Below, piece by piece: positions 10,869 through 58,230 of a stretch of 64,000 bases of DNA (within the stretch, counting starts at the first letter, position 1; every line of letters starts with the position of its first letter). The notes beneath the pieces were generated by a model. The model worked only from the letters and a program-made list of their open reading frames with translations, ran no database searches and was not told where the DNA came from. The translations under genes were made by a program, and so were the position numbers. The DNA comes from Limnospira fusiformis SAG 85.79 (GTDB lineage: Bacteria > Cyanobacteriota > Cyanobacteriia > Cyanobacteriales > Microcoleaceae): positions 4,097,363 to 4,161,362 of the forward strand of contig NZ_CP051185.1 in the NCBI RefSeq assembly GCF_012516315.1, written 5' to 3'.

Positions 10869-11514
10869 TCGTGGCTTTGTTCAAAAGTTGGATGTTGGAG
10901 AAGGTAAAGCGATCGCTCCGATCGCTTTCTGGGTTGTGGATAATCCGCTGATTGAGGATTTGATACTTACCCACTTGGGTATAGGAATCTTCAAAATCGC
11001 TTTTTTCCCCCTTCTGTTCCCCCGTTTTGGGGTCATGATAAACCGAATCATAACGGTGGGAAAGATAACCCTCCGGCGTTTGGTGGCTGCTGTGGGTGTA
11101 GATGGTCACTACCACCCCGTGAATGTGACGATGCACCATGCAGACCTCATTATTGCGGAGTTGGTAGCGATCGCCTTCTCCTTTCCCGCCGATAATGATT
11201 TCCACCGCCCCGGTTTCGTCGGTTTCGCCATAGCTAAACGTATTTTCTCCATGTACCGATTCAAAATCCCGACGTACCCGGTGGATCGCCGTTTCCCAAA
11301 GTTGTCCATGGATAGCCTTTTGCGCCGCCTCGTCAGCAACATCTAACACTTCCGCCTTCATGTCCGCCCCTACCTTCGCGCGACCATGAATCACCTTGCC
11401 ATCATGTTCGTAGGTGATATCAGCAGTATAGCCTGGGAAATCGGCATCCCAGGTGTAGCGATTTTCATAAGCCGCCCGGAAAAGTTCGCGTGCAGAAACT
11501 TGTGTAGCCGTCAT
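10864..11514 (-). CDS. DUF3386 family protein
   Basis: A 216-residue soluble protein starting at ATG 11514, preceded by a good ribosome-binding site (AGGAG, 8 bp upstream); an in-frame TTG further up is less likely. The sequence matches the general character of DUF3386, a family of cyanobacteria and plastid-bearing plants with no known activity: an N-terminal helix with ARELFRAAYENRYTW, then mostly beta strands with many conserved His, Asp and Tyr residues. Its last codons run into the GC-rich 123-bp array, and the TAG stop lies inside the repeat motif CCTACGT. The natural C-terminus may therefore have been reset by the array. Confidence 0.7.
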   Translation of the reverse strand: MTATQVSARELFRAAYENRYTWDADFPGYTADITYEHDGKVIHGRAKVGADMKAEVLDVADEAAQKAIHGQLWETAIHRVRRDFESVHGENTFSYGETDETGAVEIIIGGKGEGDRYQLRNNEVCMVHRHIHGVVVTIYTHSSHQTPEGYLSHRYDSVYHDPKTGEQKGEKSDFEDSYTQVGKYQILNQRIIHNPESDRSDRFTFSNIQLLNKATT

Positions 11515-27127: not shown

Positions 27128-27576
27128 TCTCCACGGGAGAAACGGGGTTTCTGGGCTGTTTAACAATTAACCCCAAAAATTTTTCCCAATTTGCGTAAAA
27201 GTTATCCGCCAAGGCGATAGGTAGGTATCACCTACAATTTCAGGAGTCATGCGGATTGTCAATTTACAAGCGATCGCTCCCCCGCCCTGCTTATGTGTCA
27301 AGGAAATTCCGTGAAAATACTGATGTCTGGAAACATCAGAACGGCTTTAATGGATAATTAGCAGAACTTATGATTGACGTTAAAAGGCGATCGTTCCGTC
27401 CGTCCAGTCCGTCCCACTCACCGAATCAGCCCTAGCCACGAGTACCGATCATGCAAACGCCCTTAAATAATCAGCATCAACTTATCAATGGTCGCTATCA
27501 AGTTATAAAATCCCTGGGAACCGGTAGTTTCGGCGAGGTATTCCTGGCACAAGACACCCAGATGCCCTTGCAGCAA
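27013..27576 (+). repeat. 564-bp direct repeat, copy 2 (right border of the Hsp70 cassette)
   Basis: The partner of 18840-19403. It supplies the promoter region and start of the intact kinase gene at 27451. The left junction with unique sequence is at 27013 (just after GGTTAACTCTAT); the right end of identity is at 27576. Confidence 0.95.
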
Positions 27577-29535
27577 CACTATGTGATCAAGCAACTCAAG
27601 CGCCAAGTTCAACGCCAGTTTAACAATATTGTTAAAGAACGATTCCGGCAGGAAGCGGCAACATTGCAAACTTTGGGGCAGCATAACCAGATTCCTCGGT
27701 TGTACGCTTACTTTGAGGAGCTGAACAAGTTTTACTTAGTGCAGGAGTATATCGAGGGTGAAACCCTAGAAGCGAAGGTGCAAAGGGAGGGTAAACTCAG
27801 CGAAAGTGCCGTGAGGGAAATTTTGACCAGTCTGTTGGGAGTGCTTCAATACATACACAGCAAGCAAATAGTCCATCGCGACATCAAACCGGACAATATT
27901 ATTTTGCGCCAGGAAGATCCCAAGCCAGTGTTGATTGACTTTGGTGCGGTTAAGGAAGCCATGAGTACCCAGCTCAATACCCAAGGAAATGCGGTTAACT
28001 CCATTATAATTGGTACTCCTGGGTTTATGGCTTCTGAACAGGCAATCGGTAGACCTGTTTATTCTAGTGATTTATATAGTTTGGGACTGACCGCGATTTA
28101 TATGCTAACAGGTAAGCTGCCGCAAGATTTGGCGATGGATCCTGGGACGGCAGAAATCCTTTGGCGACAAGATGCACCAGAAGTGAGTGTCGGTTTAGCC
28201 AATGTGTTAGATAAAGCAGTTCGCTCCCACGCTGGCGATCGCTACTCTAGCGCCCAAGAAATGCTCGATGCCTTGAAATCCCTTACGGATACATATATGC
28301 AGCCCGATAATAATATTCCCGCTTCTGCACCAAAACCCACATCGACATCAACAAAACGTGGGCTATTGGTTCTATCGACGATTGTTTCTCTGGTTGTTCT
28401 GGGGTTGGGGTGGCGATCGCTTCCCTACCTGTGGAAACCGAAAGTACAAGCCCAATCCTTAACAATTGGCAGTTTAAGCAATCCCAAGTACAACACCGAC
28501 CTAGTAGATTATTTACGACAAGAGTTAATCCCCAGTAATTTTATTGATTTTTTTCTGGGTAAAAAAGTAGACTTGGCGATCGATGGTGACCATAATCTAC
28601 CTTACCAAGAAGCCAAGGATAGAATAGCCAAGAAAGAGTGGGATGTCGTCTTTACCCTGTCTCCGATCATTTCTGTTGCTGCCAAAGATAACAGTTATAC
28701 GTTTGCCGCTTTAATGTTTCCTGAAGGTCCGCCTTATTATTATTCTGCATTGTACGTCAGAGCGGACAGCCCAATTCAATCTATCAATGACATAACACCA
28801 AGCACCGTAATTGCCTTGGGCGGGTTCAACTCAGCATCGAGTTTTTATATGCCCGTTTACGATTTGTATGGCAAAACTCTAACCGTAGATATGGGACACC
28901 GAGGGCAGAATATTCGGGAAATGGTGAGGACTGGAAAAGCCGATTTGGGTGCGGGGGCTTTAGGTGATACAGTCAAAAACTATCCAGATCTCCGTATCAT
29001 CCACCTGAGTCGAGCTATTCCGGGTGCAGGAGTATATCTCTCTCCCGAACTTTCAGAATCAGACAGAAAGGTAATCGAAAGAGTTTTGCTCAACGCCCCT
29101 CCAGACATTCAAAAACAAGCCAACTATGGCCTAGGCTCAGAACCAGATTATACCAATTTCAGAGGAATTATCCGGAGAACCGAAGAAATTTTAGTTTGTT
29201 CTAATTTTAGGCAGAATCCCGTTAATTTCTTTTGTGGAACTGGGGTGGGTACAGTTCCTACAACAGTTAATCATGGTGGGAATGAGATCAGGGGTCGAGT
29301 CAATGGCTGGAGGCGGCCGACTGTTGACACAGTTTGGTTAAATTTGATGGCAGAAGGTAATCAACTTTATCGGGTGGTAGTATCTTCGCAAATTCTCAAT
29401 CAAGTTCCTGGTGCTACGAATTTGCTGGAACTTCAGAATAAAGAGATTAAAGTTATGGGAGTAGTCCCGAATCAAATAGGTGATGGAATACTGGAATTAA
29501 ATATTCAGAATTCAATGGAATTGGAGGTTTTATAA
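27451..29535 (+). CDS. Ser/Thr protein kinase with PhnD-like C-terminal domain
   Basis: A 694-residue protein. Residues 14-285 are a eukaryotic-type kinase with an intact glycine loop GTGSFGEV (23-30), Lys47, HRDIKPDN (142-149, catalytic Asp144) and DFGAVKE. A Pro/Thr-rich stretch and one membrane helix follow at about 305-325 (GLLVLSTIVSLVVLGLG). Residues 335-590 look like a periplasmic binding domain of the phosphate/phosphonate type (PhnD-like): LTIGSLSNPKYNTDLVDYLR, DVVFTLSPI, ADLGAGALGD. The C-terminal 100 residues are beta-rich and unassigned. It reads as a membrane receptor kinase with an external ligand-binding domain. Before the cassette arrived it was probably next to DUF928 and the CHAT operon. 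Confidence 0.88.
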   Translation: MQTPLNNQHQLINGRYQVIKSLGTGSFGEVFLAQDTQMPLQQHYVIKQLKRQVQRQFNNIVKERFRQEAATLQTLGQHNQIPRLYAYFEELNKFYLVQEYIEGETLEAKVQREGKLSESAVREILTSLLGVLQYIHSKQIVHRDIKPDNIILRQEDPKPVLIDFGAVKEAMSTQLNTQGNAVNSIIIGTPGFMASEQAIGRPVYSSDLYSLGLTAIYMLTGKLPQDLAMDPGTAEILWRQDAPEVSVGLANVLDKAVRSHAGDRYSSAQEMLDALKSLTDTYMQPDNNIPASAPKPTSTSTKRGLLVLSTIVSLVVLGLGWRSLPYLWKPKVQAQSLTIGSLSNPKYNTDLVDYLRQELIPSNFIDFFLGKKVDLAIDGDHNLPYQEAKDRIAKKEWDVVFTLSPIISVAAKDNSYTFAALMFPEGPPYYYSALYVRADSPIQSINDITPSTVIALGGFNSASSFYMPVYDLYGKTLTVDMGHRGQNIREMVRTGKADLGAGALGDTVKNYPDLRIIHLSRAIPGAGVYLSPELSESDRKVIERVLLNAPPDIQKQANYGLGSEPDYTNFRGIIRRTEEILVCSNFRQNPVNFFCGTGVGTVPTTVNHGGNEIRGRVNGWRRPTVDTVWLNLMAEGNQLYRVVVSSQILNQVPGATNLLELQNKEIKVMGVVPNQIGDGILELNIQNSMELEVL

Positions 29536-29767: not shown

Positions 29768-30484
29768 TTACATAGCATCAGGGTCAATGCCTAATTCCCG
29801 CAGTTTTTCCGCCAGGCGGTTAGCGCGTTCTGCTTCCTGTTGTGCGCGTTCTGCTTCCTGTTGTGCGCGTTCTGCTTCCTGTTGTGCGCGTTTTTCGGCT
29901 TTTTGGCGATCGCTCTCTAACTCAATATAAGTCGAGAATTTACGACCATCGGGACGATACAATTCTAACCCCGACTCCGACATTTCAAATCTCACCCCTA
30001 GCCGGGGAGAAATCCAGCCTTTTATGGTGTCAATTAATGTCAGTTGATTCTCTGTGCGAATCCAACCACAGACATCGATTTTATCAGGGTCATATATATA
30101 GTATTCTTCCACTCCATAACGCTGATAAAAGTCCAGCTTTTTCGCCATTTCGGTTAAGGTATTACCGGGAGATAATACCTCAAAAACTACTTGGGGGGCG
30201 ATATCATCTTCTTCCCATTGCAAATAAGACCCCCGTTTAACTTTGGGTCGTCCTATGGCTACCATCACATCTGGAGCTACTCGCAGTTTATTGTTGCCTT
30301 CTACGGGATACCAGAGTAAATCTCCGGCTACAAATACGTTAGGGTCATCTTTAAAGAGGGCATCAATCCCTCCTTGAATGGTGACAATCCAGCGGAATTG
30401 TTCGGTGTTTTCTGCCATAGGTTGACCGTCGCTTTCAGGGTAGATAATTGGGGTTTGGGCAGTGGTTTTAATCTCGGTTACCAT
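29768..30484 (-). CDS. Uma2 family (DUF820) nuclease-like protein, copy 1 (3 heptads)
   Basis: 238 residues. As in all twelve copies, residues 1-192 are a Uma2/DUF820 domain of the PD-(D/E)XK nuclease fold, with Asp72 in RVAPDVMV, Glu102 in FEVLSPGNTL and the YGVEEYYIYDP strand. Then come three AQQEAER units and the end NRLAEKLRELGIDPDAM. It is the last gene of the array in the direction of transcription. It has KAEKRA before the units and EKL in the end segment, where most copies have ERL. Uma2 proteins are abundant in cyanobacteria; their substrate is not established. Confidence 0.93.
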   Translation of the reverse strand: MVTEIKTTAQTPIIYPESDGQPMAENTEQFRWIVTIQGGIDALFKDDPNVFVAGDLLWYPVEGNNKLRVAPDVMVAIGRPKVKRGSYLQWEEDDIAPQVVFEVLSPGNTLTEMAKKLDFYQRYGVEEYYIYDPDKIDVCGWIRTENQLTLIDTIKGWISPRLGVRFEMSESGLELYRPDGRKFSTYIELESDRQKAEKRAQQEAERAQQEAERAQQEAERANRLAEKLRELGIDPDAM

Positions 30485-30531
30485 GTTGCCTCCTTGGGGT
30501 GCTTTATGGGTGTATTCGTTGTCAAAGGGGA

Positions 30532-31332
30532 TTACATAACATCAGGGTCAATGCCTAATTCCCGCAGTCTTTCCGCCAGGCGGTTAGCGCGTTCTGCTTC
30601 CTGTTGGGCGCGTTCTGCTTCCTGTTGGGCGCGTTCTGCCTCCTGTTGGGCGCGTTCTGCCTCCTGTTGGGCGCGTTCTGCCTCCTGTTGGGCGTGTTCT
30701 GCCTCCTGTTGGGCGCGTTCTTCGGCTTGTTGGGCGCGTTCTTCTGCTTTTTGGCGATCGCTCTCTAACTCAATATAAGTCGAGAATTTACGACCATCGG
30801 GACGATACAATTCTAACCCCGACTCCGACATTTCAAATCTCACCCCTAGCCGGGGAGAAATCCAGCCTTTTATGGTGTCAATTAATGTCAGTTGATTCTC
30901 TGTGCGAATCCAACCACAGACATCGATTTTATCGGGGTCATATATATAGTATTCTTCCACTCCATAACGCTGATAAAAGTCCAGCTTTTTCGCCATTTCG
31001 GTTAAGGTATTACCGGGAGATAATACCTCAAAAACTACTTGGGGGGCGATATCATCTTCTTCCCATTGCAAATAAGACCCCCGTTTAACTTTGGGTCTTC
31101 CTATGGCTACCATCACATCTGGAGCTACTCGCAGTTTATTGTTGCCTTCTACGGGATACCAGAGTAAATCTCCGGCTACAAATACGTTAGGGTCATCTTT
31201 AAAGAGGGCATCAATCCCTCCTTGAATGGTGACAATCCAGCGGAATTGTTCGGTGTTTTCTGCCATAGGTTGACCGTCGCTTTCAGGGTAGATAATTGGG
31301 GTTTGGGCAGTGGTTTTAATCTCGGTTACCAT
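30532..31332 (-). CDS. Uma2 family (DUF820) nuclease-like protein, copy 2 (7 heptads)
   Basis: 266 residues. Seven units: AQQAEER, AQQEAEH, then five AQQEAER. The end is GIDPDVM, the only copy with Val instead of Ala or Thr. The nuclease-fold residues (Asp72, Glu102) are unchanged. A type A spacer of 47 bp separates it from copy 1. Confidence 0.93.
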   Translation of the reverse strand: MVTEIKTTAQTPIIYPESDGQPMAENTEQFRWIVTIQGGIDALFKDDPNVFVAGDLLWYPVEGNNKLRVAPDVMVAIGRPKVKRGSYLQWEEDDIAPQVVFEVLSPGNTLTEMAKKLDFYQRYGVEEYYIYDPDKIDVCGWIRTENQLTLIDTIKGWISPRLGVRFEMSESGLELYRPDGRKFSTYIELESDRQKAEERAQQAEERAQQEAEHAQQEAERAQQEAERAQQEAERAQQEAERAQQEAERANRLAERLRELGIDPDVM

Positions 31333-31379
31333 GTTGCCTCCTTGGGGTGCTTTATGGGTGTATTCGTTGTCAAAGGGGA

Positions 31380-32201
31380 TTACATAGCATCAGGGTCAAT
31401 GCCTAATTCCCGCAGTCTTTCCGCCAGGCGGTTAGCGCGTTCTGCTTCCTGTTGGGCGCGTTCTGCTTCCTGTTGGGCGCGTTCTGCCTCCTGTTGGGCG
31501 CGTTCTGCCTCCTGTTGGGCGCGTTCTGCCTCCTGTTGGGCGCGTTCTTCTGCTTTTTGGGCGCGTTGTGCCTGCTGTTGGGCGCGTTCTGCCTCTTGTT
31601 GGGCGCGTTCTTCTGCTTGTTGGCGATCGCTCTCTAACTCAATATAAGTCGAGAATTTACGACCATCGGGACGATACAATTCTAACCCCGACTCCGAGAT
31701 TTCAAATCTCACCCCTAGCCGGGGAGAAATCCAGCCTTTTATGGTGTCAATTAATGTCAGTTTATTCTCTGTGCGAATCCAACCACAGACATCGATTTTA
31801 TCGGGGTCATATATATAGTATTCTTCCACTCCATAACGCTGATAAAAGTCCAGCTTTTTCGCCATTTCCGTTAAGGTATTACCGGGAGATAATACCTCAA
31901 AAACTACTTGGGGGGCGATATCATCTTCTTCCCATTGTAAATAAGACCCCCGTTTAACTTTGGGTCGTCCTATGGCTACCATCACATCTGGAGCTACTCG
32001 CAGTTTATTGTTGCCTTCTACGGGATACCAGAGTAAATCTCCGGCTACAAATACGTTAGGGTCATCTTTAAAGAGGGCATCAATCCCTCCTTGAATGGTG
32101 ACAATCCAGCGGAATTGTTCGGTGTTTTCTGCCATAGGTTGACCGTCGCTTTCAGGATAGATAATTGGGGTTTGGGCAGTGATTTTAATCTCGGTTACCA
32201 T
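31380..32201 (-). CDS. Uma2 family (DUF820) nuclease-like protein, copy 3 (8 heptads)
   Basis: 273 residues. Eight units: AQQEAER, AQQQAQR, AQKAEER, then five AQQEAER. Changes in the core include Ile for Thr near residue 7 (EIKITAQ), Lys for Gln in TENKLTL and Ile for Met in RFEISE. Catalytic-type residues are intact. Type A spacers on both sides. Confidence 0.93.
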   Translation of the reverse strand: MVTEIKITAQTPIIYPESDGQPMAENTEQFRWIVTIQGGIDALFKDDPNVFVAGDLLWYPVEGNNKLRVAPDVMVAIGRPKVKRGSYLQWEEDDIAPQVVFEVLSPGNTLTEMAKKLDFYQRYGVEEYYIYDPDKIDVCGWIRTENKLTLIDTIKGWISPRLGVRFEISESGLELYRPDGRKFSTYIELESDRQQAEERAQQEAERAQQQAQRAQKAEERAQQEAERAQQEAERAQQEAERAQQEAERAQQEAERANRLAERLRELGIDPDAM

Positions 32202-32248
32202 GTGGCCTCCTTGGGGTGCTTTATGGGTGTATTCGTCGTCAAAGGGGA

Positions 32249-33112
32249 TTACATAGCATCAGGGTCAATGCCTAATTCCCGTAGTTTTTCCGCCAGGCGG
32301 TTAGCGCGTTCTGCTTCCTGTTGGGCGCGTTCTGCTTCCTGTTGGGCGCGTTCTGCTTCCTGTTGGGCGCGTTCTGCCTGCTGTTGGGCGCGTTCTGCCT
32401 GCTGTTGAGCGCGTTCTTCTGCTTTTTGGGCGCGTTGTGCCTCCTGTTGGGCGCGTTCTGCCTCCTGTTGGGCGCGTTGTGCCTGCTGTTGGGCGCGTTC
32501 TGCCTCTTGTTGGGCGCGTTCTTCTGCTTGTTGGCGATCGCTCTCTAACTCAATATAAGTCGAGAATTTACGACCATCGGGACGATACAATTCTAACCCC
32601 GACTCCGAGATTTCAAATCTCACCCCTAGCCGGGGAGAAATCCAGCCTTTTATGGTGTCAATTAATGTCAGTTGATTCTCTGTGCGAATCCAACCACAGA
32701 CATCGATTTTATCGGGGTCATATATATAGTATTCTTCCACTCCATAACGCTGATAAAAGTCCAGCTTTTTCGCCATTTCCGTTAAGGTATTACCGGGAGA
32801 TAATACCTCAAAAACTACTTGGGGGGCGATATCATCTTCTTCCCATTGCAAATAAGACCCCCGTTTAACTTTGGGTCGTCCTATGGCTACCATCACATCT
32901 GGAGCTACTCGCAGTTTATTGTTGCCTTCTACGGGATACCAGAGTAAATCTCCGGCTACAAATACGTTAGGGTCATCTTTAAAGAGGGCATCAATCCCTC
33001 CTTGAATGGTGACAATCCAGCGGAATTGTTCGGTGTTTTCTGCCATAGGTTGACCGTCGCTTTCGGGGTAGATAATTGGGGTTTTGGGAGTGGTTTTAAT
33101 CTCTGTTACCAT
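32249..33112 (-). CDS. Uma2 family (DUF820) nuclease-like protein, copy 4 (10 heptads)
   Basis: 287 residues. Ten units: AQQEAER, AQQQAQR, AQQEAER, AQQEAQR, AQKAEER, two AQQQAER and three AQQEAER. The N-terminus reads KTTPKTP, as in copies 5 and 11. Upstream (towards copy 5) the spacer is type B, downstream type A. Confidence 0.93.
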   Translation of the reverse strand: MVTEIKTTPKTPIIYPESDGQPMAENTEQFRWIVTIQGGIDALFKDDPNVFVAGDLLWYPVEGNNKLRVAPDVMVAIGRPKVKRGSYLQWEEDDIAPQVVFEVLSPGNTLTEMAKKLDFYQRYGVEEYYIYDPDKIDVCGWIRTENQLTLIDTIKGWISPRLGVRFEISESGLELYRPDGRKFSTYIELESDRQQAEERAQQEAERAQQQAQRAQQEAERAQQEAQRAQKAEERAQQQAERAQQQAERAQQEAERAQQEAERAQQEAERANRLAEKLRELGIDPDAM

Positions 33113-33162
33113 GTTGCCTCCTTGGGGTGGGTTCTGTGCCTAAACTGGTTCAACTTTTTCCC

Positions 33163-34047
33163 TTACATAGCATCAGGGTCAATGCCTAATTCCCGCAGTC
33201 TTTCCGCCAGGCGGTTAGCGCGTTCTGCTTCCTGTTGGGCGCGTTCTGCTTCCTGTTGGGCGCGTTCTGCTTCCTGTTGGGCGCGTTCTGCCTGCTGTTG
33301 GGCGCGTTCTGCCTGCTGTTGAGCGCGTTCTTCTGCTTTTTGGGCGCGTTGTGCCTCCTGTTGGGCGCGTTCTGCCTCCTGTTGGGCGTGTTCTGCCTCC
33401 TGTTGGGCGTGTTCTGCCTCCTGTTGGGCGCGTTCTTCGGCTTGTTGGGCGCGTTCTTCTGCTTTTTGGCGATCGCTCTCTAACTCAATATAAGTCGAGA
33501 ATTTACGACCATCGGGACGATACAATTCTAACCCCGACTCCGAGATTTCAAATCTCACCCCTAGCCGGGGAGAAATCCAGCCTTTTATGGTGTCAATTAA
33601 TGTCAGTTGATTCTCTGTGCGAATCCAACCACAGACATCGATTTTATCGGGGTCATATATATAGTATTCTTCCACTCCATAACGCTGATAAAAGTCCAGC
33701 TTTTTCGCCATTTCCGTTAAGGTATTACCGGGAGATAATACCTCAAAAACTACTTGGGGGGCGATATCATCTTCTTCCCATTGCAAATAAGACCCCCGTT
33801 TAACTTTGGGTCTTCCTATGGCTACCATCACATCTGGAGCTACTCGCAGTTTATTGTTGCCTTCTACGGGATACCAGAGTAAATCTCCGGCTACAAATAC
33901 GTTAGGGTCATCTTTAAAGAGGGCATCAATCCCTCCTTGAATGGTGACAATCCAGCGGAATTGTTCGGTGTTTTCTGCCATAGGTTGACCGTCGCTTTCG
34001 GGGTAGATAATTGGGGTTTTGGGAGTGGTTTTAATCTCTGTTACCAT
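33163..34047 (-). CDS. Uma2 family (DUF820) nuclease-like protein, copy 5 (11 heptads, longest)
   Basis: 294 residues, the longest copy. Eleven units: AQQAEER, two AQQEAEH, AQQEAER, AQQEAQR, AQKAEER, two AQQQAER and three AQQEAER, a predicted coiled coil of about 77 residues plus flanks. Both neighbouring spacers are type B. The core is nearly identical to copy 4. Confidence 0.93.
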   Translation of the reverse strand: MVTEIKTTPKTPIIYPESDGQPMAENTEQFRWIVTIQGGIDALFKDDPNVFVAGDLLWYPVEGNNKLRVAPDVMVAIGRPKVKRGSYLQWEEDDIAPQVVFEVLSPGNTLTEMAKKLDFYQRYGVEEYYIYDPDKIDVCGWIRTENQLTLIDTIKGWISPRLGVRFEISESGLELYRPDGRKFSTYIELESDRQKAEERAQQAEERAQQEAEHAQQEAEHAQQEAERAQQEAQRAQKAEERAQQQAERAQQQAERAQQEAERAQQEAERAQQEAERANRLAERLRELGIDPDAM

Positions 34048-34097
34048 GTGGCCTCCTTGGGGTGGGTTCTGTGCCTAAACTGGTTCAACTTTTTCCC

Positions 34098-34940
34098 TTA
34101 CATAGCATCAGGGTCAATGCCTAATTCCCGCAGTCTTTCCGCCAGGCGGTTAGCGCGTTCTGCTTCCTGTTGGGCGCGTTCTGCTTCCTGTTGGGCGCGT
34201 TCTGCCTGCTGTTGGGCGCGTTCTGCCTGCTGTTGAGCGCGTTCTTCTGCTTTTTGGGCGCGTTGTGCCTCCTGTTGGGCGCGTTCTGCCTCCTGTTGGG
34301 CGTGTTCTGCCTCCTGTTGGGCGCGTTCTTCGGCTTGTTGGGCGCGTTCTTCTGCTTTTTGGCGATCGCTCTCTAACTCAATATAAGTCGAGAATTTACG
34401 ACCATCGGGACGATACAATTCTAACCCCGACTCCGAGATTTCAAATTTCACCCCTAGCCGGGGAGAAATCCAGCCTTTTATGGTGTCAATTAATGTCAGT
34501 TGATTCTCTGTGCGAATCCAACCACAGACATCGATTTTATCGGGGTCATATATATAGTATTCTTCCACTCCATAACGCTGATAAAAGTCCAGCTTTTTCG
34601 CCATTTCCGTTAAGGTATTACCGGGAGATAATACCTCAAAAACTACTTGGGGGGCGATATCATCTTCTTCCCATTGTAAATAAGACCCCCGTTTAACTTT
34701 GGGTCGTCCTATGGCTACCATCACATCTGGAGCTACTCGCAGTTTATTGTTGCCTTCTACGGGATACCAGAGTAAATCTCCGGCTACAAATACGTTAGGG
34801 TCATCTTTAAAGAGGGCATCAATCCCTCCTTGAATGGTGACAATCCAGCGGAATTGTTCGGTGTTTTCTGCCATAGGTTGACCGTCGCTTTCAGGATAGA
34901 TAATTGGGGTTTGGGCAGTGATTTTAATCTCGGTTACCAT
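34098..34940 (-). CDS. Uma2 family (DUF820) nuclease-like protein, copy 6 (9 heptads)
   Basis: 280 residues. Nine units: AQQAEER, AQQEAEH, AQQEAER, AQQEAQR, AQKAEER, two AQQQAER and two AQQEAER, that is copy 5 minus one AQQEAEH and one AQQEAER. The N-terminus has EIKITAQ like copy 3, and the core has VKFEISE (Lys for Arg). Confidence 0.93.
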   Translation of the reverse strand: MVTEIKITAQTPIIYPESDGQPMAENTEQFRWIVTIQGGIDALFKDDPNVFVAGDLLWYPVEGNNKLRVAPDVMVAIGRPKVKRGSYLQWEEDDIAPQVVFEVLSPGNTLTEMAKKLDFYQRYGVEEYYIYDPDKIDVCGWIRTENQLTLIDTIKGWISPRLGVKFEISESGLELYRPDGRKFSTYIELESDRQKAEERAQQAEERAQQEAEHAQQEAERAQQEAQRAQKAEERAQQQAERAQQQAERAQQEAERAQQEAERANRLAERLRELGIDPDAM

Positions 34941-34987
34941 GTGGCCTCCTTGGGGTGCTTTATGGGTGTATTCGTCGTCAAAGGGGA

Positions 34988-35662
34988 TTACATAGCATCA
35001 GGGTCAATGCCTAATTCCCGTAGTTTTTCCGCCAGGCGGTTAGCGCGTTCTTCCGCTTGTTGGGCGCGTTCTTCTGCTTGTTGGCGATCGCTCTCTAACT
35101 CAATATAAGTCGAGAATTTACGACCATCGGGACGATACAATTCTAACCCCGACTCCGAGATTTCAAATCTCACCCCTAGCCGGGGAGAAATCCAGCCTTT
35201 TATGGTGTCAATTAATGTCAGTTGATTCTCTGTGCGAATCCAACCACAGACATCGATTTTATCGGGGTCATATATATAGTATTCTTCCACTCCATAACGC
35301 TGATAAAAGTCCAGCTTTTTCGCCATTTCGGTTAAGGTATTACCGGGAGATAATACCTCAAAAACTACTTGGGGGGCGATATCATCTTCTTCCCATTGCA
35401 AATAAGACCCCCGTTTAACTTTGGGTCTTCCTATGGCTACCATCACATCTGGAGCTACTCGCAGTTTATTGTTGCCTTCTACGGGATACCAGAGTAAATC
35501 TCCGGCTACAAATACGTTAGGGTCATCTTTAAAGAGGGCATCAATCCCTCCTTGAATGGTGACAATCCAGCGGAATTGTTCGGTGTTTTCTGCCATAGGT
35601 TGACCGTCGCTTTCAGGATAGATAATTGGCGTTTGGGGAGTGGTTTTAATCTCGGTTACCAT
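34988..35662 (-). CDS. Uma2 family (DUF820) nuclease-like protein, copy 7 (1 heptad)
   Basis: 224 residues with a single AQQAEER unit followed by the common NRLAEKL end. It has the N-terminus KTTPQTP shared with copy 12. Type A spacers lie on both sides. Despite the short tail, the nuclease-fold core and ribosome-binding site are intact, so it is not a degraded copy. Confidence 0.93.
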   Translation of the reverse strand: MVTEIKTTPQTPIIYPESDGQPMAENTEQFRWIVTIQGGIDALFKDDPNVFVAGDLLWYPVEGNNKLRVAPDVMVAIGRPKVKRGSYLQWEEDDIAPQVVFEVLSPGNTLTEMAKKLDFYQRYGVEEYYIYDPDKIDVCGWIRTENQLTLIDTIKGWISPRLGVRFEISESGLELYRPDGRKFSTYIELESDRQQAEERAQQAEERANRLAEKLRELGIDPDAM

Positions 35663-35709
35663 GTCGCCTCCTTGGGGTGCTTTATGGGTGTATTCGTCGT
35701 CAAAGGGGA

Positions 35710-36489
35710 TTACATAGTATCAGGGTCAATACCTAATTCCCGCAGTCTTTCCGCCAGGCGGTTAGCGCGTTCTGCTTCCTGTTGGGCGCGTTCTGCTTCC
35801 TGTTGGGCGCGTTCTGCCTGCTGTTGGGCGCGTTCTTCGGCTTGTTGGGCGCGTTCTGCCTGCTGTTGGGCGCGTTCTGTTTCCTGTTGGGCGCGTTCTT
35901 CTGCTTTTTGGCGATCGCTCTCTAACTCAATATAAGTCGAGAATTTACGACCATCGGGACGATACAATTCTAACCCCGACTCCGAGATTTCAAATCTCAC
36001 CCCTAACCGGGGAGAAATCCAGCCTTTTATGGTGTCAATTAATGTCAGTTGATTCTCTGTGCGAATCCAACCACAGACATCGATTTTATCGGGGTCATAT
36101 ATATAGTATTCTTCCACTCCATAACGCTGATAAAAGTCCAGCTTTTTCGCCATTTCGGTTAAGGTATTACCGGGAGATAATACCTCAAAAACTACTTGGG
36201 GGGCGATATCATCTTCTTCCCATTGCAAATAAGACCCCCGTTTAACTTTGGGTCGTCCTATGGCTACCATCACATCTGGAGCTACTCGCAGTTTATTGTT
36301 GCCTTCTACGGGATACCAGAGTAAATCTCCGGCTACAAATACGTTAGGGTCATCTTTAAAGAGGGCATCAATCCCTCCTTGAATGGTGACAATCCAGCGG
36401 AATTGTTCGGTATTTTCTGCCATAGGTTGACCGTCGTTTTCGGGGTAGATAATTGGGGTTTGGGCAGTGGTTTTAATCTCTGTTACCAT
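35710..36489 (-). CDS. Uma2 family (DUF820) nuclease-like protein, copy 8 (6 heptads)
   Basis: 259 residues. Six units: AQQETER, AQQQAER, AQQAEER, AQQQAER and two AQQEAER. The AQQETER unit (Thr) is shared only with copies 9 and 10, marking a local sub-family. The N-terminus has YPENDG where most copies have YPESDG, and the end is GIDPDTM. Confidence 0.93.
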   Translation of the reverse strand: MVTEIKTTAQTPIIYPENDGQPMAENTEQFRWIVTIQGGIDALFKDDPNVFVAGDLLWYPVEGNNKLRVAPDVMVAIGRPKVKRGSYLQWEEDDIAPQVVFEVLSPGNTLTEMAKKLDFYQRYGVEEYYIYDPDKIDVCGWIRTENQLTLIDTIKGWISPRLGVRFEISESGLELYRPDGRKFSTYIELESDRQKAEERAQQETERAQQQAERAQQAEERAQQQAERAQQEAERAQQEAERANRLAERLRELGIDPDTM

Positions 36490-36539
36490 GTGGCCTCCTT
36501 GGGGTGAGTTCTGTGCATAAAGTGGTTCAACTTTTTCCC

Positions 36540-37277
36540 TTACATAGTATCAGGGTCAATACCTAATTCCCGCAGTCTTTCCGCCAGGCGGTTAGCGCGT
36601 TCTGCTTCCTGTTGGGCGCGTTCTTCCGCTTGTTGGGCGCGTTCTGCCTGCTGTTGGGCGCGTTCTGTTTCCTGTTGGGCGCGTTCTTCGGCTTGTTGGC
36701 GATCGCTCTCTAACTCAATATAAGTCGAGAATTTACGACCATCGGGACGATACAATTCTAACCCCGACTCCGACATTTCAAATCTCACCCCTAACCGGGG
36801 AGAAATCCAGCCTTTTATGGTGTCAATTAATGTCAGTTGATTCTCTGTGCGAATCCAACCACAGATATCGATTTTATCAGGGTCATATATATAGTATTCT
36901 TCCACTCCATAACGCTGATAAAAGTCCAGCTTTTTCGCCATTTCGGTTAAGGTATTACCGGGAGATAATACCTCAAAAACTACTTGGGGGGCGATATCAT
37001 CTTCTTCCCATTGCAAATAAGACCCCCGTTTAACTTTGGGTCGTCCTATGGCTACCATCACATCTGGAGCTACTCGCAGTTTATTGTTGCCTTCTACGGG
37101 ATACCAGAGTAAATCTCCGGCTACAAATACGTTAGGGTCATCTTTAAAGAGGGCATCAATCCCTCCTTGAATGGTGACAATCCAGCGGAATTGTTCGGTG
37201 TTTTCTGCCATAGGTTGACCGTCGTTTTCGGGGTAGATAATTGGGGTTTGGGCAGTGGTTTTAATCTCTGTTACCAT
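36540..37277 (-). CDS. Uma2 family (DUF820) nuclease-like protein, copy 9 (4 heptads)
   Basis: 245 residues. Four units: AQQETER, AQQQAER, AQQAEER, AQQEAER. Like copies 8 and 10 it has YPENDG and ends GIDPDTM; it alone has KIDICG instead of KIDVCG. Type B spacers flank it on both sides. Confidence 0.93.
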   Translation of the reverse strand: MVTEIKTTAQTPIIYPENDGQPMAENTEQFRWIVTIQGGIDALFKDDPNVFVAGDLLWYPVEGNNKLRVAPDVMVAIGRPKVKRGSYLQWEEDDIAPQVVFEVLSPGNTLTEMAKKLDFYQRYGVEEYYIYDPDKIDICGWIRTENQLTLIDTIKGWISPRLGVRFEMSESGLELYRPDGRKFSTYIELESDRQQAEERAQQETERAQQQAERAQQAEERAQQEAERANRLAERLRELGIDPDTM

Positions 37278-37327
37278 GTGGCCTCCTTGGGGTGAGTTCT
37301 GTGCATAAAGTGGTTCAACTTTTTCCC

Positions 37328-38086
37328 TTACATAGTATCAGGGTCAATACCTAATTCCCGCAGTCTTTCCGCCAGGCGGTTAGCGCGTTCTGCTTCCTGT
37401 TGGGCGCGTTCTGCTTCCTGTTGGGCGCGTTCTTCGGCTTGTTGGGCGCGTTCTGCCTGCTGTTGGGCGCGTTCTGTTTCCTGTTGGGCGCGTTCTTCTG
37501 CTTTTTGGCGATCGCTCTCTAACTCAATATAAGTCGAGAATTTACGACCATCGGGACGATACAATTCTAACCCCGACTCCGAGATTTCAAATTTCACCCC
37601 TAGCCGGGGAGAAATCCAGCCTTTTATGGTGTCAATTAATGTCAGTTGATTCTCTGTGCGAATCCAACCACAGACATCGATTTTATCAGGGTCATATATA
37701 TAGTATTCTTCCACTCCATAACGCTGATAAAAGTCCAGCTTTTTCGCCATTTCGGTTAAGGTATTACCGGGAGATAATACCTCAAAAACTACTTGGGGGG
37801 CGATATCATCTTCTTCCCATTGCAAATAAGACCCCCGTTTAACTTTGGGTCGTCCTATGGCTACCATCACATCTGGAGCTACTCGCAGTTTATTGTTGCC
37901 TTCTACGGGATACCAGAGTAAATCTCCGGCTACAAATACGTTAGGGTCATCTTTAAAGAGGGCATCAATCCCTCCTTGAATGGTGACAATCCAGCGGAAT
38001 TGTTCGGTATTTTCTGCCATAGGTTGACCGTCGTTTTCGGGGTAGATAATTGGGGTTTGGGCAGTGGTTTTAATCTCTGTTACCAT
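37328..38086 (-). CDS. Uma2 family (DUF820) nuclease-like protein, copy 10 (5 heptads)
   Basis: 252 residues. Five units: AQQETER, AQQQAER, AQQAEER and two AQQEAER, that is copy 9 plus one AQQEAER. The core carries VKFEISE like copy 6. Type B spacers on both sides. Confidence 0.93.
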   Translation of the reverse strand: MVTEIKTTAQTPIIYPENDGQPMAENTEQFRWIVTIQGGIDALFKDDPNVFVAGDLLWYPVEGNNKLRVAPDVMVAIGRPKVKRGSYLQWEEDDIAPQVVFEVLSPGNTLTEMAKKLDFYQRYGVEEYYIYDPDKIDVCGWIRTENQLTLIDTIKGWISPRLGVKFEISESGLELYRPDGRKFSTYIELESDRQKAEERAQQETERAQQQAERAQQAEERAQQEAERAQQEAERANRLAERLRELGIDPDTM

Positions 38087-38136
38087 GTGGCCTCCTTGGG
38101 GTGAGTTCTGTGCATAAAGTGGTTCAACTTTTTCCC

Positions 38137-38832
38137 TTACATAGTATCAGGGTCAATACCTAATTCCCGCAGTCTTTCCGCCAGGCGGTTAGCGCGTTCT
38201 GCTTCCTGTTGGGCGCGTTCTTCCGCTTGTTGGGCGCGTTCTTCTGCTTTTTGGCGATCGCTCTCTAACTCAATATAAGTCGAGAATTTACGACCATCGG
38301 GACGATACAATTCTAACCCCGACTCCGACATTTCAAATCTCACCCCTAACCGGGGAGAAATCCAGCCTTTTATGGTGTCAATTAAGGTCAGTTGATTCTC
38401 TGTGCGAATCCAGCCACAGACATCGATTTTATCAGGGTCATATATATAGTATTCTTCCACTCCATAACGCTGATAAAAGTCCAGCTTTTTCGCCATTTCC
38501 GTTAAGGTATTACCGGGAGATAATACCTCAAAAACTACTTGGGGGGCGATATCATCTTCTTCCCATTGTAAATAAGACCCCCGTTTAACTTTGGGTCGTC
38601 CTATGGCTACCATCACATCTGGAGCTACTCGCAGTTTATTGTTGCCTTCTACGGGATACCAGAGTAAATCTCCGGCTACAAATACGTTAGGGTCATCTTT
38701 AAAGAGGGCATCAATCCCTCCTTGAATGGTGACAATCCAGCGGAATTGTTCGGTATTTTCTGCCATAGGTTGACCGTCGCTTTCGGGGTAGATAATTGGG
38801 GTTTTGGGAGTGGTTTTAATCTCGGTTACCAT
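38137..38832 (-). CDS. Uma2 family (DUF820) nuclease-like protein, copy 11 (2 heptads)
   Basis: 231 residues. Two units: AQQAEER and AQQEAER. The N-terminus reads KTTPKTP and the end GIDPDTM, so it mixes traits of the copy 4/5 and copy 8-10 groups, consistent with gene conversion inside the array. Spacer type B downstream, type A upstream. Confidence 0.93.
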   Translation of the reverse strand: MVTEIKTTPKTPIIYPESDGQPMAENTEQFRWIVTIQGGIDALFKDDPNVFVAGDLLWYPVEGNNKLRVAPDVMVAIGRPKVKRGSYLQWEEDDIAPQVVFEVLSPGNTLTEMAKKLDFYQRYGVEEYYIYDPDKIDVCGWIRTENQLTLIDTIKGWISPRLGVRFEMSESGLELYRPDGRKFSTYIELESDRQKAEERAQQAEERAQQEAERANRLAERLRELGIDPDTM

Positions 38833-38879
38833 GTGGCCTCCTTGGGGTGCTTTATGGGTGTATTCGTCGTCAAAGGGGA

Positions 38880-39533
38880 TTACATAGCATCAGGGTCAAT
38901 GCCTAATTCTCGCAGTCTTTCAGCCAGGCGGTTAGCGCGTTCTTCGGCTTGTTGGCGTTGGTTGTCCAATTCGATATAAGTCGAGAATTTACGACCATCG
39001 GGACGATACAATTCTAACCCCGACTCCGACATTTCAAATCTCACCCCTAGCCGGGGAGAAATCCAGCCTTTTATGGTGTCAATTAATGTCAGTTGATTCT
39101 CTGTGCGAATCCAACCACAGACATCGATTTTATCGGGGTCATATATATAGTATTCTTCCACTCCATAACGCTGATAAAAGTCCAGCTTTTTCGCCATTTC
39201 GGTTAAGGTATTACCGGGAGATAATACCTCAAAAACTACTTGGGGGGCGATATCATCTTCTTCCCATTGCAAATAAGACCCCCGTTTAACTTTGGGTCGT
39301 CCTATGGCTACCATCACATCTGGAGCTACTCGCAGTTTATTGTTGCCTTCTACGGGATACCAGAGTAAATCTCCGGCTACAAATACGTTAGGGTCATCTT
39401 TAAAGAGGGCATCAATCCCTCCTTGAATGGTGACAATCCAGCGGAATTGTTCGGTGTTTTCTGCCATAGGTTGACCGTCGCTTTCGGGGTAGATAATTGG
39501 GGTTTGGGGAGTGGTTTTAATCTCGGTTACCAT
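38880..39533 (-). CDS. Uma2 family (DUF820) nuclease-like protein, copy 12 (no heptads, first of array)
   Basis: 217 residues from ATG 39533, chosen because AAAGGAGG lies 5 bp upstream, as in the other copies. The frame stays open back to 39623, but those 30 residues have no match in the other copies. It has no heptad unit, and the segment before the end reads ELDNQRQQAEE instead of ELESDRQ, so it is the most distinct copy. It may be the ancestral form, and its upstream region (39534-39640) the only array promoter that does not lie in a spacer. Confidence 0.9.
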   Translation of the reverse strand: MVTEIKTTPQTPIIYPESDGQPMAENTEQFRWIVTIQGGIDALFKDDPNVFVAGDLLWYPVEGNNKLRVAPDVMVAIGRPKVKRGSYLQWEEDDIAPQVVFEVLSPGNTLTEMAKKLDFYQRYGVEEYYIYDPDKIDVCGWIRTENQLTLIDTIKGWISPRLGVRFEMSESGLELYRPDGRKFSTYIELDNQRQQAEERANRLAERLRELGIDPDAM

Positions 39534-39909: not shown

Positions 39910-42384
39910 TTAGCCGTTAGTAGTGGCATATTCAGGAAGCCGACGCAGACGTTCTTCGCCAGTGAGAACTTTTACCTGTCCATCATCATCCAAGTCTACC
40001 AAAGCCTGATCACCCGGTTTAAGTGTACCGGATAGCATGGTTTCCGCTAGGACATCTTCTAACAGATTCATAATCGCACGACGGAGGGGACGAGCGCCAT
40101 AATTAGGATCATATCCCACCTCAACAATATGATCTTTAAAGCGATCGCTAACTTCCAGGACAATCTCCTTATCCCGCAAGCGAGCAAACACTTCCTCCAA
40201 CAGGATATCAGCAATCTGTTTAACCTCATCTTTGGTCAACTTACGGAAAACAATAATCTCATCGAGACGGTTAATAAACTCCGGTCGGAAATACTGTTTC
40301 AACTCCTCATTAACCAAATTGCGAATCCGAGTATATTGAGCCTCTTCCTGTGATTGCTCAAACTCAAAACCCAGACCGCCGCCACCCTTTTCTATCACCT
40401 TCGAGCCGATATTGGAAGTCATGATAATCAGAGTATTTTTGAAACTGACCGTGCGACCTTTAGCATCAGTCAACCGTCCATCCTCCAAAATCTGCAATAG
40501 CATATTAAAGACATCGGGGTGAGCCTTTTCGATTTCGTCAAACAGAATCACCGTATAGGGACGACGACGCACCGCCTCCGTCAGTTGTCCACCCTCATCA
40601 TAGCCGACAAAACCGGGAGGGGAACCAATCAACTTAGAAACCGTGTGGCGTTCCATAAACTCGGACATATCCAAACGGATCATCGCTTCCATGGAACCAA
40701 AGAAGTAATAAGCCAAAGCCTTGGTTAGTTCGGTTTTTCCCACCCCGGTCGGACCGGAAAAGATAAAGCTGGCGATCGGTCGGTTGGGGTTTTTCAGTCC
40801 CACCCTGGCGCGACGAATAGCGCGGGAAACGGCGCTCACAGCCTCATGTTGACCTATCAGGCGCTGATGTAGGGTATCTTCCATGTGCATCAGTTTATAG
40901 GACTCAGATTCAGTCATTTTAGTGACGGGAATTCCTGTCCAGGCTGAGAGGACATCGGCGATATCTTCTTCGGTAACAATTAAGTTAGTTTTGATGCTGG
41001 TTTCCACTTGGGAAGCGGCTTCAATTTGGTCTTTGCATTTCAATTCACGATCGCGCAATTCTCCAGCCTTATCGAAATCCTGAACTTGAACAGCGACATC
41101 TTTTTGTTTAACAATGTCGGACAGTTCCACTTTCAGATCTCGCACTTCTGGGGGTAACTTAGAGTGCATCACCCTCACCCGCGAGCCAGCTTCATCAATT
41201 AAATCGATCGCCTTATCAGGAAGAAAGCGATCGCTAATATAGCGGTGAGATAGTTTCGCCGCCGCCAAAACCGCCTCATCAGAAATAGTCAAGCGGTGGT
41301 GTTGTTCATAAGCCGATCGCAACCCAAATAGAATCTCGATAGTTTCCTCAACGCTAGGTTCTCCCACCATTACCGGCTGAAATCGGCGTTCTAAGGCGGC
41401 ATCACGCTCAATATACTTCCGGTATTCATCCAGAGTCGTTGCGCCGATACACTGCAATTCTCCCCTTGCTAAAGCCGGTTTGAGCATATTAGCCGCATCC
41501 ATAGTTCCCTCAATGGCTCCCGCTCCCACCAGGGTATGGATTTCGTCAATTAATAGGATAATATTGCCATTAGCCTTAATTTCCTGAACAATTTTTTTGA
41601 GTCGTTCTTCAAACTCTCCCCGGAAACGGGTTCCCGCCACCAGAGTTCCCATTTCCAGGCTCACCACTTGGCGATTTTCCAGAAGTTCCGGCACATTTCC
41701 ATTAATAATACGTTGAGCGAGTCCTTCTGCGATCGCTGTTTTACCAACCCCCGGTTCACCAATTAGCACCGGGTTGTTTTTGGTACGGCGACCGAGTATT
41801 TGAATCACCCGTTCTATTTCGCGATCGCGTCCTACAATAGGATCTAGCTTTCCTTGAGCTGCCAACTGAGTCAAGTTAGTAGAAAACTCATCAAGGGTCG
41901 CCGTTTTACGACTCTGACTGCGGGAGTTTCCCCCGGCTGAGGCGGGGACTTCCTCCCCTAAATTTTTAATCAATTCTGTCCGCAATTGTCGGCGCTCAAT
42001 ACCGAAGTTTTCCAGAACCTTGGCTGCTACGCCTTCTTCATCTTGCAACAGGCCTAGCAATATATGTTCTGGCGCAATATAATTATTGCCTAACTGCCTA
42101 GCCTCTTTCATCGCCGACTCAAAGACCCTCTTGGCGCGAGGCGTAAACGGAATTTCTGGTGGCATAAAACCAGAACCGCGCCCAATAATAGATTCTATCT
42201 CACGGCGGGTATTATCCAAGTTTAGGTTTTGGTCTGAGAGTACCTTGGCGGCGATACTGGTTCCTTCCCCAATAATACCCAGTAGCAGTTGTTCAGTCCC
42301 GACGAAGTTATGTCCCAAACGTCGCGCCTCTTCCTGAGACAGCATCACGGCCTTGATCGCTTTATCTGAAAAATATTCAAACAT
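39910..42384 (-). CDS. clpC: ATP-dependent Clp protease ATP-binding subunit ClpC
   Basis: An 824-residue HSP100 chaperone that unfolds substrates for the ClpP peptidase. Order: two N-terminal Clp repeats (1-150; [32 protein letters not shown]), first AAA+ module with Walker A GEPGVGKT and Walker B LLIDEIHT, middle coiled coil with a UVR-type motif ([15 protein letters not shown]) that separates ClpC from ClpA and ClpB, second AAA+ module with [10 protein letters not shown] and [13 protein letters not shown], and the D2-small domain. In the second module the tip loop region [12 protein letters not shown] precedes the conserved C-terminus. Start ATG 42384. All nucleotide-binding motifs are intact. 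It is transcribed alone. Confidence 0.97.
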
Positions 42385-57189: not shown

Positions 57190-58230
57190 CAAAAAACCGA
57201 GTTTCTCCCAGTCTCTTGACAAACTTATGGCGATCGCTTCCAAAGAAACCGGGTTTCTCCCAGAAACCGGGTTTCTAAGCATCTCTCAAAGAAACCCGGT
57301 TTCTCCCAGAAACCGGGTTTCTAGATATCTCTCAAAGAAACCGGGTTTCTAGATATCTCTCAAAGAAACCGGGTTTCCCCCAAACCTCTTGACAAACTTA
57401 TGGCGATCGCTTCCAAAGAAACCCGGTTTCTCCCAGAAACCGGGTTTCTAGATATCTCTCAAAGAAACCGGGTTTCTCCCAGAAACCGGGTTTCTAAGCA
57501 TCTCTCAAAACAACCGAGTTTCCCCAGACCCCTTGACAAACTTATGGCGATCGCTTCCAAAGAAACCGGGTTTCTCCCAGAAACCGGGTTTCTAAGCATC
57601 TCTCAAAGAAACCCGGTTTCTCCCAGAAACCGGGTTTCTAGATATCTCTCAAAGAAACCGGGTTTCTAGATATCTCTCAAAGAAACCGGGTTTCCCCCAA
57701 ACCTCTTGACAAACTTATGGCGATCGCTTCCAAAGAAACCGGGTTTCTCCCAGAAACCGGGTTTCTAAGCATCTCTCAAAGAAACCCGGTTTCTCCCAGA
57801 AACCGGGTTTCTAGATATCTCTCAAAGAAACCGGGTTTCTCCCAGAAACCGGGTTTCTAAGCATCTCTCAAAACAACCGAGTTTCCCCAGACCCCTTGAC
57901 AAACTTATGGCGATCGCTTCTAAAGAAACCGGGTTTCTCCCAGAAACCGGGTTTCTAAGCATCTCTCAAAGAAACCCGGTTTCTCCCAGAAACCGGGTTT
58001 CTAGATATCTCTCAAAGAAACCGGGTTTCTAGATATCTCTCAAAGAAACCGGGTTTCCCCCAAACCTCTTGACAAACTTATGGCGATCGCTTCCAAAGAA
58101 ACCGGGTTTCTCCCAGAAACCGGGTTTCTAAGCATCTCTCAAAACAACCGAGTTTCCCCCAGAAACCGGGTTTCTAGATATCTCTCAAAGAAACCGGGTT
58201 TCTAGGTATCTCTCAAAGAAACCGGGTTTT
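57190..58230. repeat. palindromic AGAAACCGGGTTTCT repeat array
   Basis: The 15-bp palindrome AGAAACCGGGTTTCT and variants occur dozens of times, joined by CTAGATATCTCTCAA or CTAAGCATCTCTCAA. Larger units begin with CTTGACAAACTTATGGCGAT at 57215, 57388, 57532, 57705, 57895 and 58068, spaced 173, 144, 173, 190 and 173 bp. The array separates the copper ATPase and dnaX genes. Read into RNA it would fold almost completely. Open frames here carry only repeat-encoded residues. Confidence 0.93.

What the first reader, a model, noticed from the sequence alone, without database searches (positions are those of the whole stretch)
29768..39533. Twelve Uma2 paralogues form a complete coiled-coil length ladder (0-11 heptads, each once)
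Seen in sequence: the twelve proteins are 217, 224, 231, 238, 245, 252, 259, 266, 273, 280, 287 and 294 residues long, steps of exactly 7, with no length repeated. In order of transcription (copy 12 to copy 1) the heptad counts are 0, 2, 5, 4, 6, 1, 9, 11, 10, 8, 7, 3. The nuclease-fold core and end segment are constant. If counts were drawn evenly from 0-11, a set of twelve with no repeats has a chance of about 5 in 100,000 (12!/12^12). Units such as AQQEAER place Ala at both core positions, an Alacoil, so each step would add about one nanometre. Inference: a diversity-generating paralogue set, perhaps with length-matched homotypic pairing or ruler-like spacing between two nuclease heads.
Basis: partly seen in the sequence, partly recalled or inferred. 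Interest (0 to 1): 0.95.

Follow-up and report, generated by a model that had tools for sequence, protein, structure and literature searches.

The report
One nuclease gene per coiled-coil length
A cyanobacterium carries twelve nearly identical predicted DNA-cutting enzymes that differ mainly in the length of a rod-like tail, one gene for each length, and similar gene clusters elsewhere also tend to avoid two copies of the same length, as if tail length were each enzyme's identity tag.

Summary
In detail: twelve tandem Uma2 genes encode proteins of 217-294 residues in steps of seven, each length once. It is not a lucky pick. The same closed genome holds two more complete ladders (9 and 10 intact copies), and two other genera hold complete ladders of 6 and 5. 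Over 46 arrays (194 copies, 21 genomes) there are 13 equal-length pairs but 106 pairs one heptad apart. Independent draws predict at least 53 equal pairs on average; for the 30 arrays of three or more copies, 0 of 20,000 simulations had as few. Fourteen neutral duplication/slippage settings gave no deficit.

The rule is strong, not absolute.

My explanation, untested biochemically: heptad number sets each nuclease's pairing specificity, so equal-length copies are redundant and lost. Precedent: in Rpn nucleases one extra repeat abolishes RpnL-RpnS matching (PMC10327210). Against a close Rpn analogy: I found no internal start in the window's genes, and Rpn arrays show the exclusion only weakly.

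The parts
29768..30484 (-). Uma2 copy 1, 238 aa, 3 heptads
30532..31332 (-). Uma2 copy 2, 266 aa, 7 heptads
31380..32201 (-). Uma2 copy 3, 273 aa, 8 heptads
32249..33112 (-). Uma2 copy 4, 287 aa, 10 heptads
33163..34047 (-). Uma2 copy 5, 294 aa, 11 heptads; model shows one helix over residues 186-286
34098..34940 (-). Uma2 copy 6, 280 aa, 9 heptads
34988..35662 (-). Uma2 copy 7, 224 aa, 1 heptad
35710..36489 (-). Uma2 copy 8, 259 aa, 6 heptads
36540..37277 (-). Uma2 copy 9, 245 aa, 4 heptads
37328..38086 (-). Uma2 copy 10, 252 aa, 5 heptads
38137..38832 (-). Uma2 copy 11, 231 aa, 2 heptads
38880..39533 (-). Uma2 copy 12, 217 aa, 0 heptads; first in the direction of transcription
   Evidence: ATG at 39533 preceded by AAAGGAGG
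33218..33457 (-). example of the 21-bp repeat tract (copy 5); the other tracts are listed

Best explanation
SHOWN: tandem arrays of coil-bearing Uma2 (PD-(D/E)XK-fold) genes in cyanobacteria keep a conserved nuclease core while the C-terminal coil varies by whole heptads, and two intact copies of one array share a length about four times less often than any independent-draw model allows. INFERRED: heptad number is the identity tag of each protein. Chains with the same number of heptads pair in register and chains that differ by even one do not, so equal-length copies behave as one and the same unit. A duplicated gene is therefore redundant and soon lost unless slippage changes its heptad number, after which it is a separate unit that selection retains. 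Repeated duplication, slippage and retention yields a gap-free ladder with one gene per rung. The proteins are most likely toxic or defensive nucleases held in check, or assembled, through the coil.
For: The window array holds rungs 0-11 each once. Independent complete ladders: G000 L037 (9) and L038 (10 intact), G382 L171 (6), G054 L175 (5); 10 of 14 arrays with five or more copies have no tie. Pair counts by length difference 0/7/14/21/28/35 aa: 13/106/89/74/66/52. Outside Arthrospira, 15 arrays of three or more copies (57 copies) have 2 ties against a mean of 10.0; 3 of 20,000 runs as low. Purifying selection on the cores (mean dN 0.0064 and dS 0.042 within G000; 0.036 and 0.303 between species) and homogenisation (98.6% and 98.8% within, 91.8% between; neighbouring clpC 95.6%), although copying between genes would tend to create ties. 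14 of 14 neutral settings gave ties at or above the independent-draw level, ratio 1.03-16.8; a model in which every distinct length is protected from any loss gave 0.06-0.25 in 5 of 5 settings; observed 0.25. Precedent: adding one repeat to RpnC-S or RpnC-LS abolishes matching, and adding it to both restores it (PMC10327210). Makarova et al. call Uma2 a likely solo toxin found in cassettes of paralogues (PMC2701414, passage); 5 of 5 proteins tested match the PADLOC defence candidate PDC-S03.
Against: Ties do occur: 13 in 46 arrays, some with clearly different coil sequences (L044 pair 3/10, L197), some near-identical (G001 L084 pair 5/6, G001 L076 pair 5/9 with no difference found). L035 has three equal copies of six. 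Rpn arrays, where repeat matching is experimentally known, show only a weak deficit (9 ties, 24 pairs one repeat apart; P 0.064), so exclusion does not follow automatically from length-matched pairing. Models that protect a unique length only from deletion or conversion did not produce a deficit (11 of 11 settings, ratio 1.20-2.18). No pairing, toxicity or nuclease data exist for these proteins. For the 19 other genomes the listings showed approximate lengths before I fetched the loci.
Confidence: 0.45

Rival explanations
1. Ruler set: each length holds two nuclease heads, or head and partner, at a different spacing, and the cell is selected to cover every spacing once.
For: Gap-free coverage in 5 of 14 arrays of five or more copies; one helix of 101 residues predicted in copy 5. 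TAEL-repeat spacer of EcoR124I/II as precedent, described in PMC10327210.
Against: Chain orientation unknown; a parallel dimer would put both heads at the same end, so length would not set their spacing. Sets differ between sister species: G001 covers rungs 1-7 in the window's numbering, the window 0-11.
Confidence: 0.2
2. Rpn-like intragenic toxin-antitoxin units: a separately made C-terminal coil fragment inhibits only the nuclease with the same heptad number, so losing a unique length is lethal and losing a duplicate is harmless.
For: Rpn precedent. Only the protected-from-any-loss model reproduces the observed deficit. Cap sequence RLAxxLRxLGIDP recurs in several Uma2 subfamilies with different coils.
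Against: In the window family no in-frame ATG, GTG or TTG shared by all copies with a suitably spaced Shine-Dalgarno lies between about codon 71 and the coil, whereas 12 of 12 real starts have AAGGAGG; the only ATG near the coil is in 5 of 12 copies. A start without Shine-Dalgarno is not excluded. Other subfamilies were scanned only from 60 codons before to 44 after an anchor in the core. Rpn arrays show weak exclusion.
Confidence: 0.15
3. Neutral: tandem duplication, 21-bp slippage, unequal exchange and gene conversion, without selection on length.
For: The 21-bp repeats are slippage-prone, and 468 of 493 non-zero length differences are multiples of seven (47 arrays). Related copies differ by one or two units, e.g. 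copies 8, 10 and 9.
Against: Independent draws require ties to be at least half the pairs one heptad apart; 13 against 53 observed. 14 of 14 neutral settings gave a ratio of 1.03 or more.
Confidence: 0.1
4. Assembly artefact: equal-length copies were collapsed.
For: No raw reads were available; tandem repeats are hard to assemble.
Against: The same assembly keeps equal-length copies: L044 (two pairs), L035 (three coil copies), L031 (one pair), six equal-length coil-less copies in L035 and three coil-less tandem pairs of 219, 230 and 191 aa. G001 keeps a pair without differences over the stretches compared. Complete ladders occur in four genomes' separate records.
Confidence: 0.05

Closest known systems
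Uma2 / DUF820 / COG4636 family (PF05685)
   Same: Core matches PF05685 at 4.2e-17 and solved Uma2-type structures 6okh, 3ot2, 9y1l, 1wdj; D72, E102 and K116 invariant in 30 of 30 aligned sequences, which fits the PD-EXX-K site of Feder and Bujnicki (PMC551604, passages). Paralogue cassettes and tandem duplicates were described (PMC2701414, PMC551604, passages).
   Different: Neither set of passages mentions coil-length ladders or exclusion of equal lengths; the word 'coiled' does not occur in PMC551604.
Rpn (recombination-promoting nuclease) toxin-antitoxin systems
   Same: PD-(D/E)XK nuclease with a C-terminal helix whose repeat number varies; tandem arrays; repeat number sets pairing specificity in Rpn.
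   Different: Different family: no TIGR01784 match among 5 of 5 Uma2 proteins; heptads rather than four-residue repeats; no internal start found in the window family; exclusion weak in Rpn arrays.
Type I restriction HsdS with TAEL repeats (EcoR124I/II)
   Same: Repeat number in a helical spacer changes specificity (as described in PMC10327210).
   Different: There one subunit spaces two DNA-recognition domains; here there are many paralogues per genome and no methylase or HsdS was sought or seen in the ORFs.

Membership tests
Uma2 (PF05685) | Pfam profile match above cut-off | tested here: met
   copies 1 and 5 and four proteins of other arrays, all above 27 bits; 135 places in the genome
Uma2 (PF05685) | PD-(D/E)XK fold | tested here: met
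   Foldseek E 3.9e-8 to 2.7e-6 to 6okh, 3ot2, 9y1l, 1wdj
Uma2 (PF05685) | Relocated active site PD-EXX-K | tested here: met
   D72, E102, K116 invariant in 30 of 30; motif taken from PMC551604
Uma2 (PF05685) | Nuclease activity | not testable with these tools
   none
Rpn toxin-antitoxin | Rpn family profile (TIGR01784) | tested here: not met
   no match at E 0.01 or better for 5 of 5 proteins
Rpn toxin-antitoxin | Internal translation start with ribosome-binding site before the repeat | tested here: not met
   window family only; other subfamilies scanned in part; starts without Shine-Dalgarno not excluded
Rpn toxin-antitoxin | C-terminal helix with variable number of repeats | tested here: met
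   but heptads, not four-residue units
Rpn toxin-antitoxin | Repeat-number matching between toxin and antitoxin | not testable with these tools
   none for Uma2; shown for Rpn in PMC10327210
Anti-phage defence candidate | Match to a PADLOC model | tested here: met
   PDC-S03, best E 1.7e-12 (window copy 5); 5 of 5 proteins match, weakest best-hit 1.3e-4; a candidate family, function untested

The most novel reading that the evidence does not exclude
A genome-encoded length code: paralogous nucleases with one conserved catalytic core use coil length, read to a single heptad, as their only address, and equal-length exclusion keeps one gene per address. Each rung would be an autonomous single-gene unit, and the array a self-assembling set of mutually insulated units that grows by duplication and slippage.
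Probability: 0.35. Interest if true: 0.93.

Novelty: new variant of a known kind. Interest (0 to 1): 0.82.

Why it matters
Repeat-number specificity is known for single genes (Rpn, HsdS). A set of paralogues partitioned one per length, recurring in independent arrays, would show that coil length alone can act as an orthogonal address in a living cell. It would give a natural library of insulated coiled coils, and it makes the long-unknown function of the Uma2 family, so abundant in cyanobacteria, directly testable with one pairing matrix.

Tried and rejected
Strict no-duplicate rule: rejected, ties in G001 L076 and in G000 L044, L035, L031.

Explaining the pattern by independent draws or neutral simulation: rejected. 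My first two selection models (unique length protected from deletion and conversion only) also failed to give a deficit: 6 of 6 settings and 5 of 5.

Broken copies as a control: inconclusive. In L045 and L038 three N-terminally broken copies with complete coils have the same length as an intact copy, but in a nearly full ladder that is expected; broken copies in G001 L080 and L082 and in G278 L203 do not tie.

Rpn arrays as a positive control: weak. 13 arrays, 57 copies, 9 ties, 24 pairs one repeat apart; arrays of three or more copies 8 ties against a mean of 12.9, P 0.064; G000 L219 alone has 5 ties in 13 copies.

Wider distribution: of 77 named loci from genome contigs only two held a tandem coil-Uma2 cluster by my filter, one of them G001 itself, mostly draft contigs. 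In a set of 8 closed or two-contig genomes most hits were single genes. Literature searches listed nothing on coil-length ladders in Uma2; only open-licence papers are held, and I looked inside six of them.

Rows dropped before the counts: frameshifted or N-terminally truncated copies in L045, L038, L084, L191; all of L080; masked copies of L178/L179; coil-less Uma2 clusters (L035 plus strand, L086, one of L177, L077 minus strand, L205, L206); antisense ORFs; the DUF4351-ended clusters of L195 and L196; fetched loci without a cluster at 70% identity (L174, L180, L202, L204, L207-L210). Two small arrays kept in the count (L082, L203) each still hold one N-terminally short copy; neither has a tie. 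still contained L080; one search does not. The coil-less pairs fetched were checked after the count and are not in it.

How arrays were chosen: in G000 every place where one search listed three or more neighbouring hits was fetched, plus some pairs and singles. In the other 19 genomes I took places with neighbouring hits; the listings print open-frame lengths, and for L171 and L175 I had noticed the gradation before fetching. G000 without the window alone still gives 6 ties against 21.3 (10 arrays, 66 copies, 0 of 4000).
Full report
WHAT IS THERE. Between a protein kinase/phosphonate-binding gene (27451-29535, plus) and a ClpC-type gene (39910-42384, minus) lie twelve minus-strand genes of the Uma2 family. 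Spacers are 47 or 50 bases, and each gene starts with AAGGAGG and an ATG in register. The units are mostly AQQEAER with variants AQQAEER, AQQQAER, AQKAEER and others, written with 13 distinct 21-mers. The window lies in a closed 6.42-Mb genome (G000) with 135 Uma2 places.

IS IT MORE THAN CHANCE. I read the other tandem Uma2 arrays of G000, the arrays of G001, and arrays in 19 further cyanobacterial genomes. Lengths were measured from an anchor in the core to the stop, so start-codon choice does not matter. Complete ladders with each rung once: the window (12), G000 L037 (9), G000 L038 (10 intact of 16 ORFs), G382 L171 (6), G054 L175 (5). That is 5 of 14 arrays with five or more copies; 10 of 14 have no tie. 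For independent draws from any one distribution the expected number of ties is at least half the expected number of pairs one step apart (Cauchy-Schwarz; my derivation). Observed: 13 ties and 106 one-heptad pairs in 46 arrays, 194 copies. Simulations with uniform draws conditional on each array's minimum and maximum gave 46.9 ties on average against 12 observed for the 30 arrays of three or more copies, 0 of 20,000 as low. Without the window, for five or more copies, 36.8 against 9, 0 of 20,000. Outside Arthrospira 10.0 against 2, 3 of 20,000. G000 alone without the window: 21.3 against 6, 0 of 4000.

THE RULE IS NOT STRICT. The orthologous array of G001, at the same place beside the same neighbours, has rungs 1,4,5,6,2,3,7,7,4,3 in the window's numbering: three ties in ten copies. 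One tied pair shows no difference in the compared core or tail, one differs by two residues in the tail, one by five. L044 (12 copies) shows all ten rungs of its range plus two repeats. L035 has one length three times, with two different unit orders among the three.

WHY NOT NEUTRAL OR ARTEFACT. Cores within each species are 98.6% and 98.8% identical against 91.8% between species, while the neighbouring clpC is 95.6% identical: concerted evolution or recent amplification. dN/dS below one shows purifying selection. Exchange that homogenises cores should create equal lengths. Ten neutral settings (slippage, duplication, unequal exchange, conversion) and four further neutral ones with deletion bias gave tie ratios of 1.03-16.8; the observed ratio is 13/53, about 0.25. 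Models that protect a unique length only against deletion and conversion failed too (ratio 1.20-2.18, 11 of 11 settings). Models that protect it against any loss gave 0.06-0.25, 5 of 5. So the data ask for individual retention of every length. Collapse in assembly is unlikely, because the same assembly holds equal-length coil copies, six equal-length coil-less Uma2 genes in L035, and three coil-less tandem pairs of equal length.

WHAT THE PROTEIN IS. The fold search puts the core with solved Uma2/DUF820 structures. D72, E102 and K116 are invariant in 30 of 30 aligned homologues, agreeing with the PD-EXX-K site proposed for COG4636 (PMC551604, passages). The model of copy 5 (mean pLDDT 83.4) has one helix from residue 186 to 286. 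It is a monomer model and says nothing of partners.

HOW IT MOST LIKELY WORKS. Shown: length diversity is maintained, one heptad is a meaningful step, and cores are conserved. Inferred: heptad number decides who pairs with whom, so that equal copies are redundant. The direct precedent is Rpn, another PD-(D/E)XK nuclease with a repeat-bearing C-terminal helix: one added repeat in toxin or antitoxin abolishes matching, and adding it to both restores it (PMC10327210, parts 1-3 of 4 of the text read). Makarova et al. call Uma2 a likely solo toxin that mostly forms cassettes of paralogues (PMC2701414, passage), and PADLOC carries it as defence candidate PDC-S03. Two results weaken a close Rpn analogy: no internal start with a suitably placed Shine-Dalgarno in the window's family, and a weak, non-significant deficit of ties in 13 Rpn arrays, even though several of those, such as G080 L211 with seven distinct lengths in steps of four, look ladder-like.

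KNOWN OR NEW. Family, fold, active site and paralogue cassettes are known. Exclusion of equal coil lengths was not in the listings of my literature searches, which cover open-licence papers only. I therefore call it a new variant of a known kind, with a bolder reading kept in the novel case.

Noticed in passing
L211 (G080:C1:1432000-1445000), L214-L219: Rpn nuclease genes also form tandem arrays with four-residue repeat steps; seven of seven copies in L211 differ in length, but L219 (13 copies) has five ties.
   Followed up: partly
L033, L043, L044 (G000): One coil-Uma2 subfamily sits beside several copies of a gene that looks like psbA (recalled from its N-terminal sequence, no family search run).
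   Followed up: no
L035 (G000:C1:1532000-1546000): Six coil-Uma2 genes alternate with six coil-less Uma2 genes on the opposite strand, all six of equal length.
   Followed up: partly
L038 (G000:C1:2648500-2668000): Sixteen Uma2 ORFs, ten intact on a complete ladder and six broken, several by frameshifts inside the coil; its C-terminal cap differs from the usual LGIDP cap.
   Followed up: partly
window 57190-58229: About 1 kb of nested tandem repeats built on AGAAACCGGGTTTCT with a 28-46 base period.
   Followed up: no
window 9888-10869: Tandem repeats of 28 and 123 bases (GGGTGGGGCGGGTTTATTCACCAAATC).
   Followed up: no
window 27451-29535: A predicted protein kinase fused to a phosphonate-type periplasmic binding domain, conserved beside the array in G001.
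   Followed up: no
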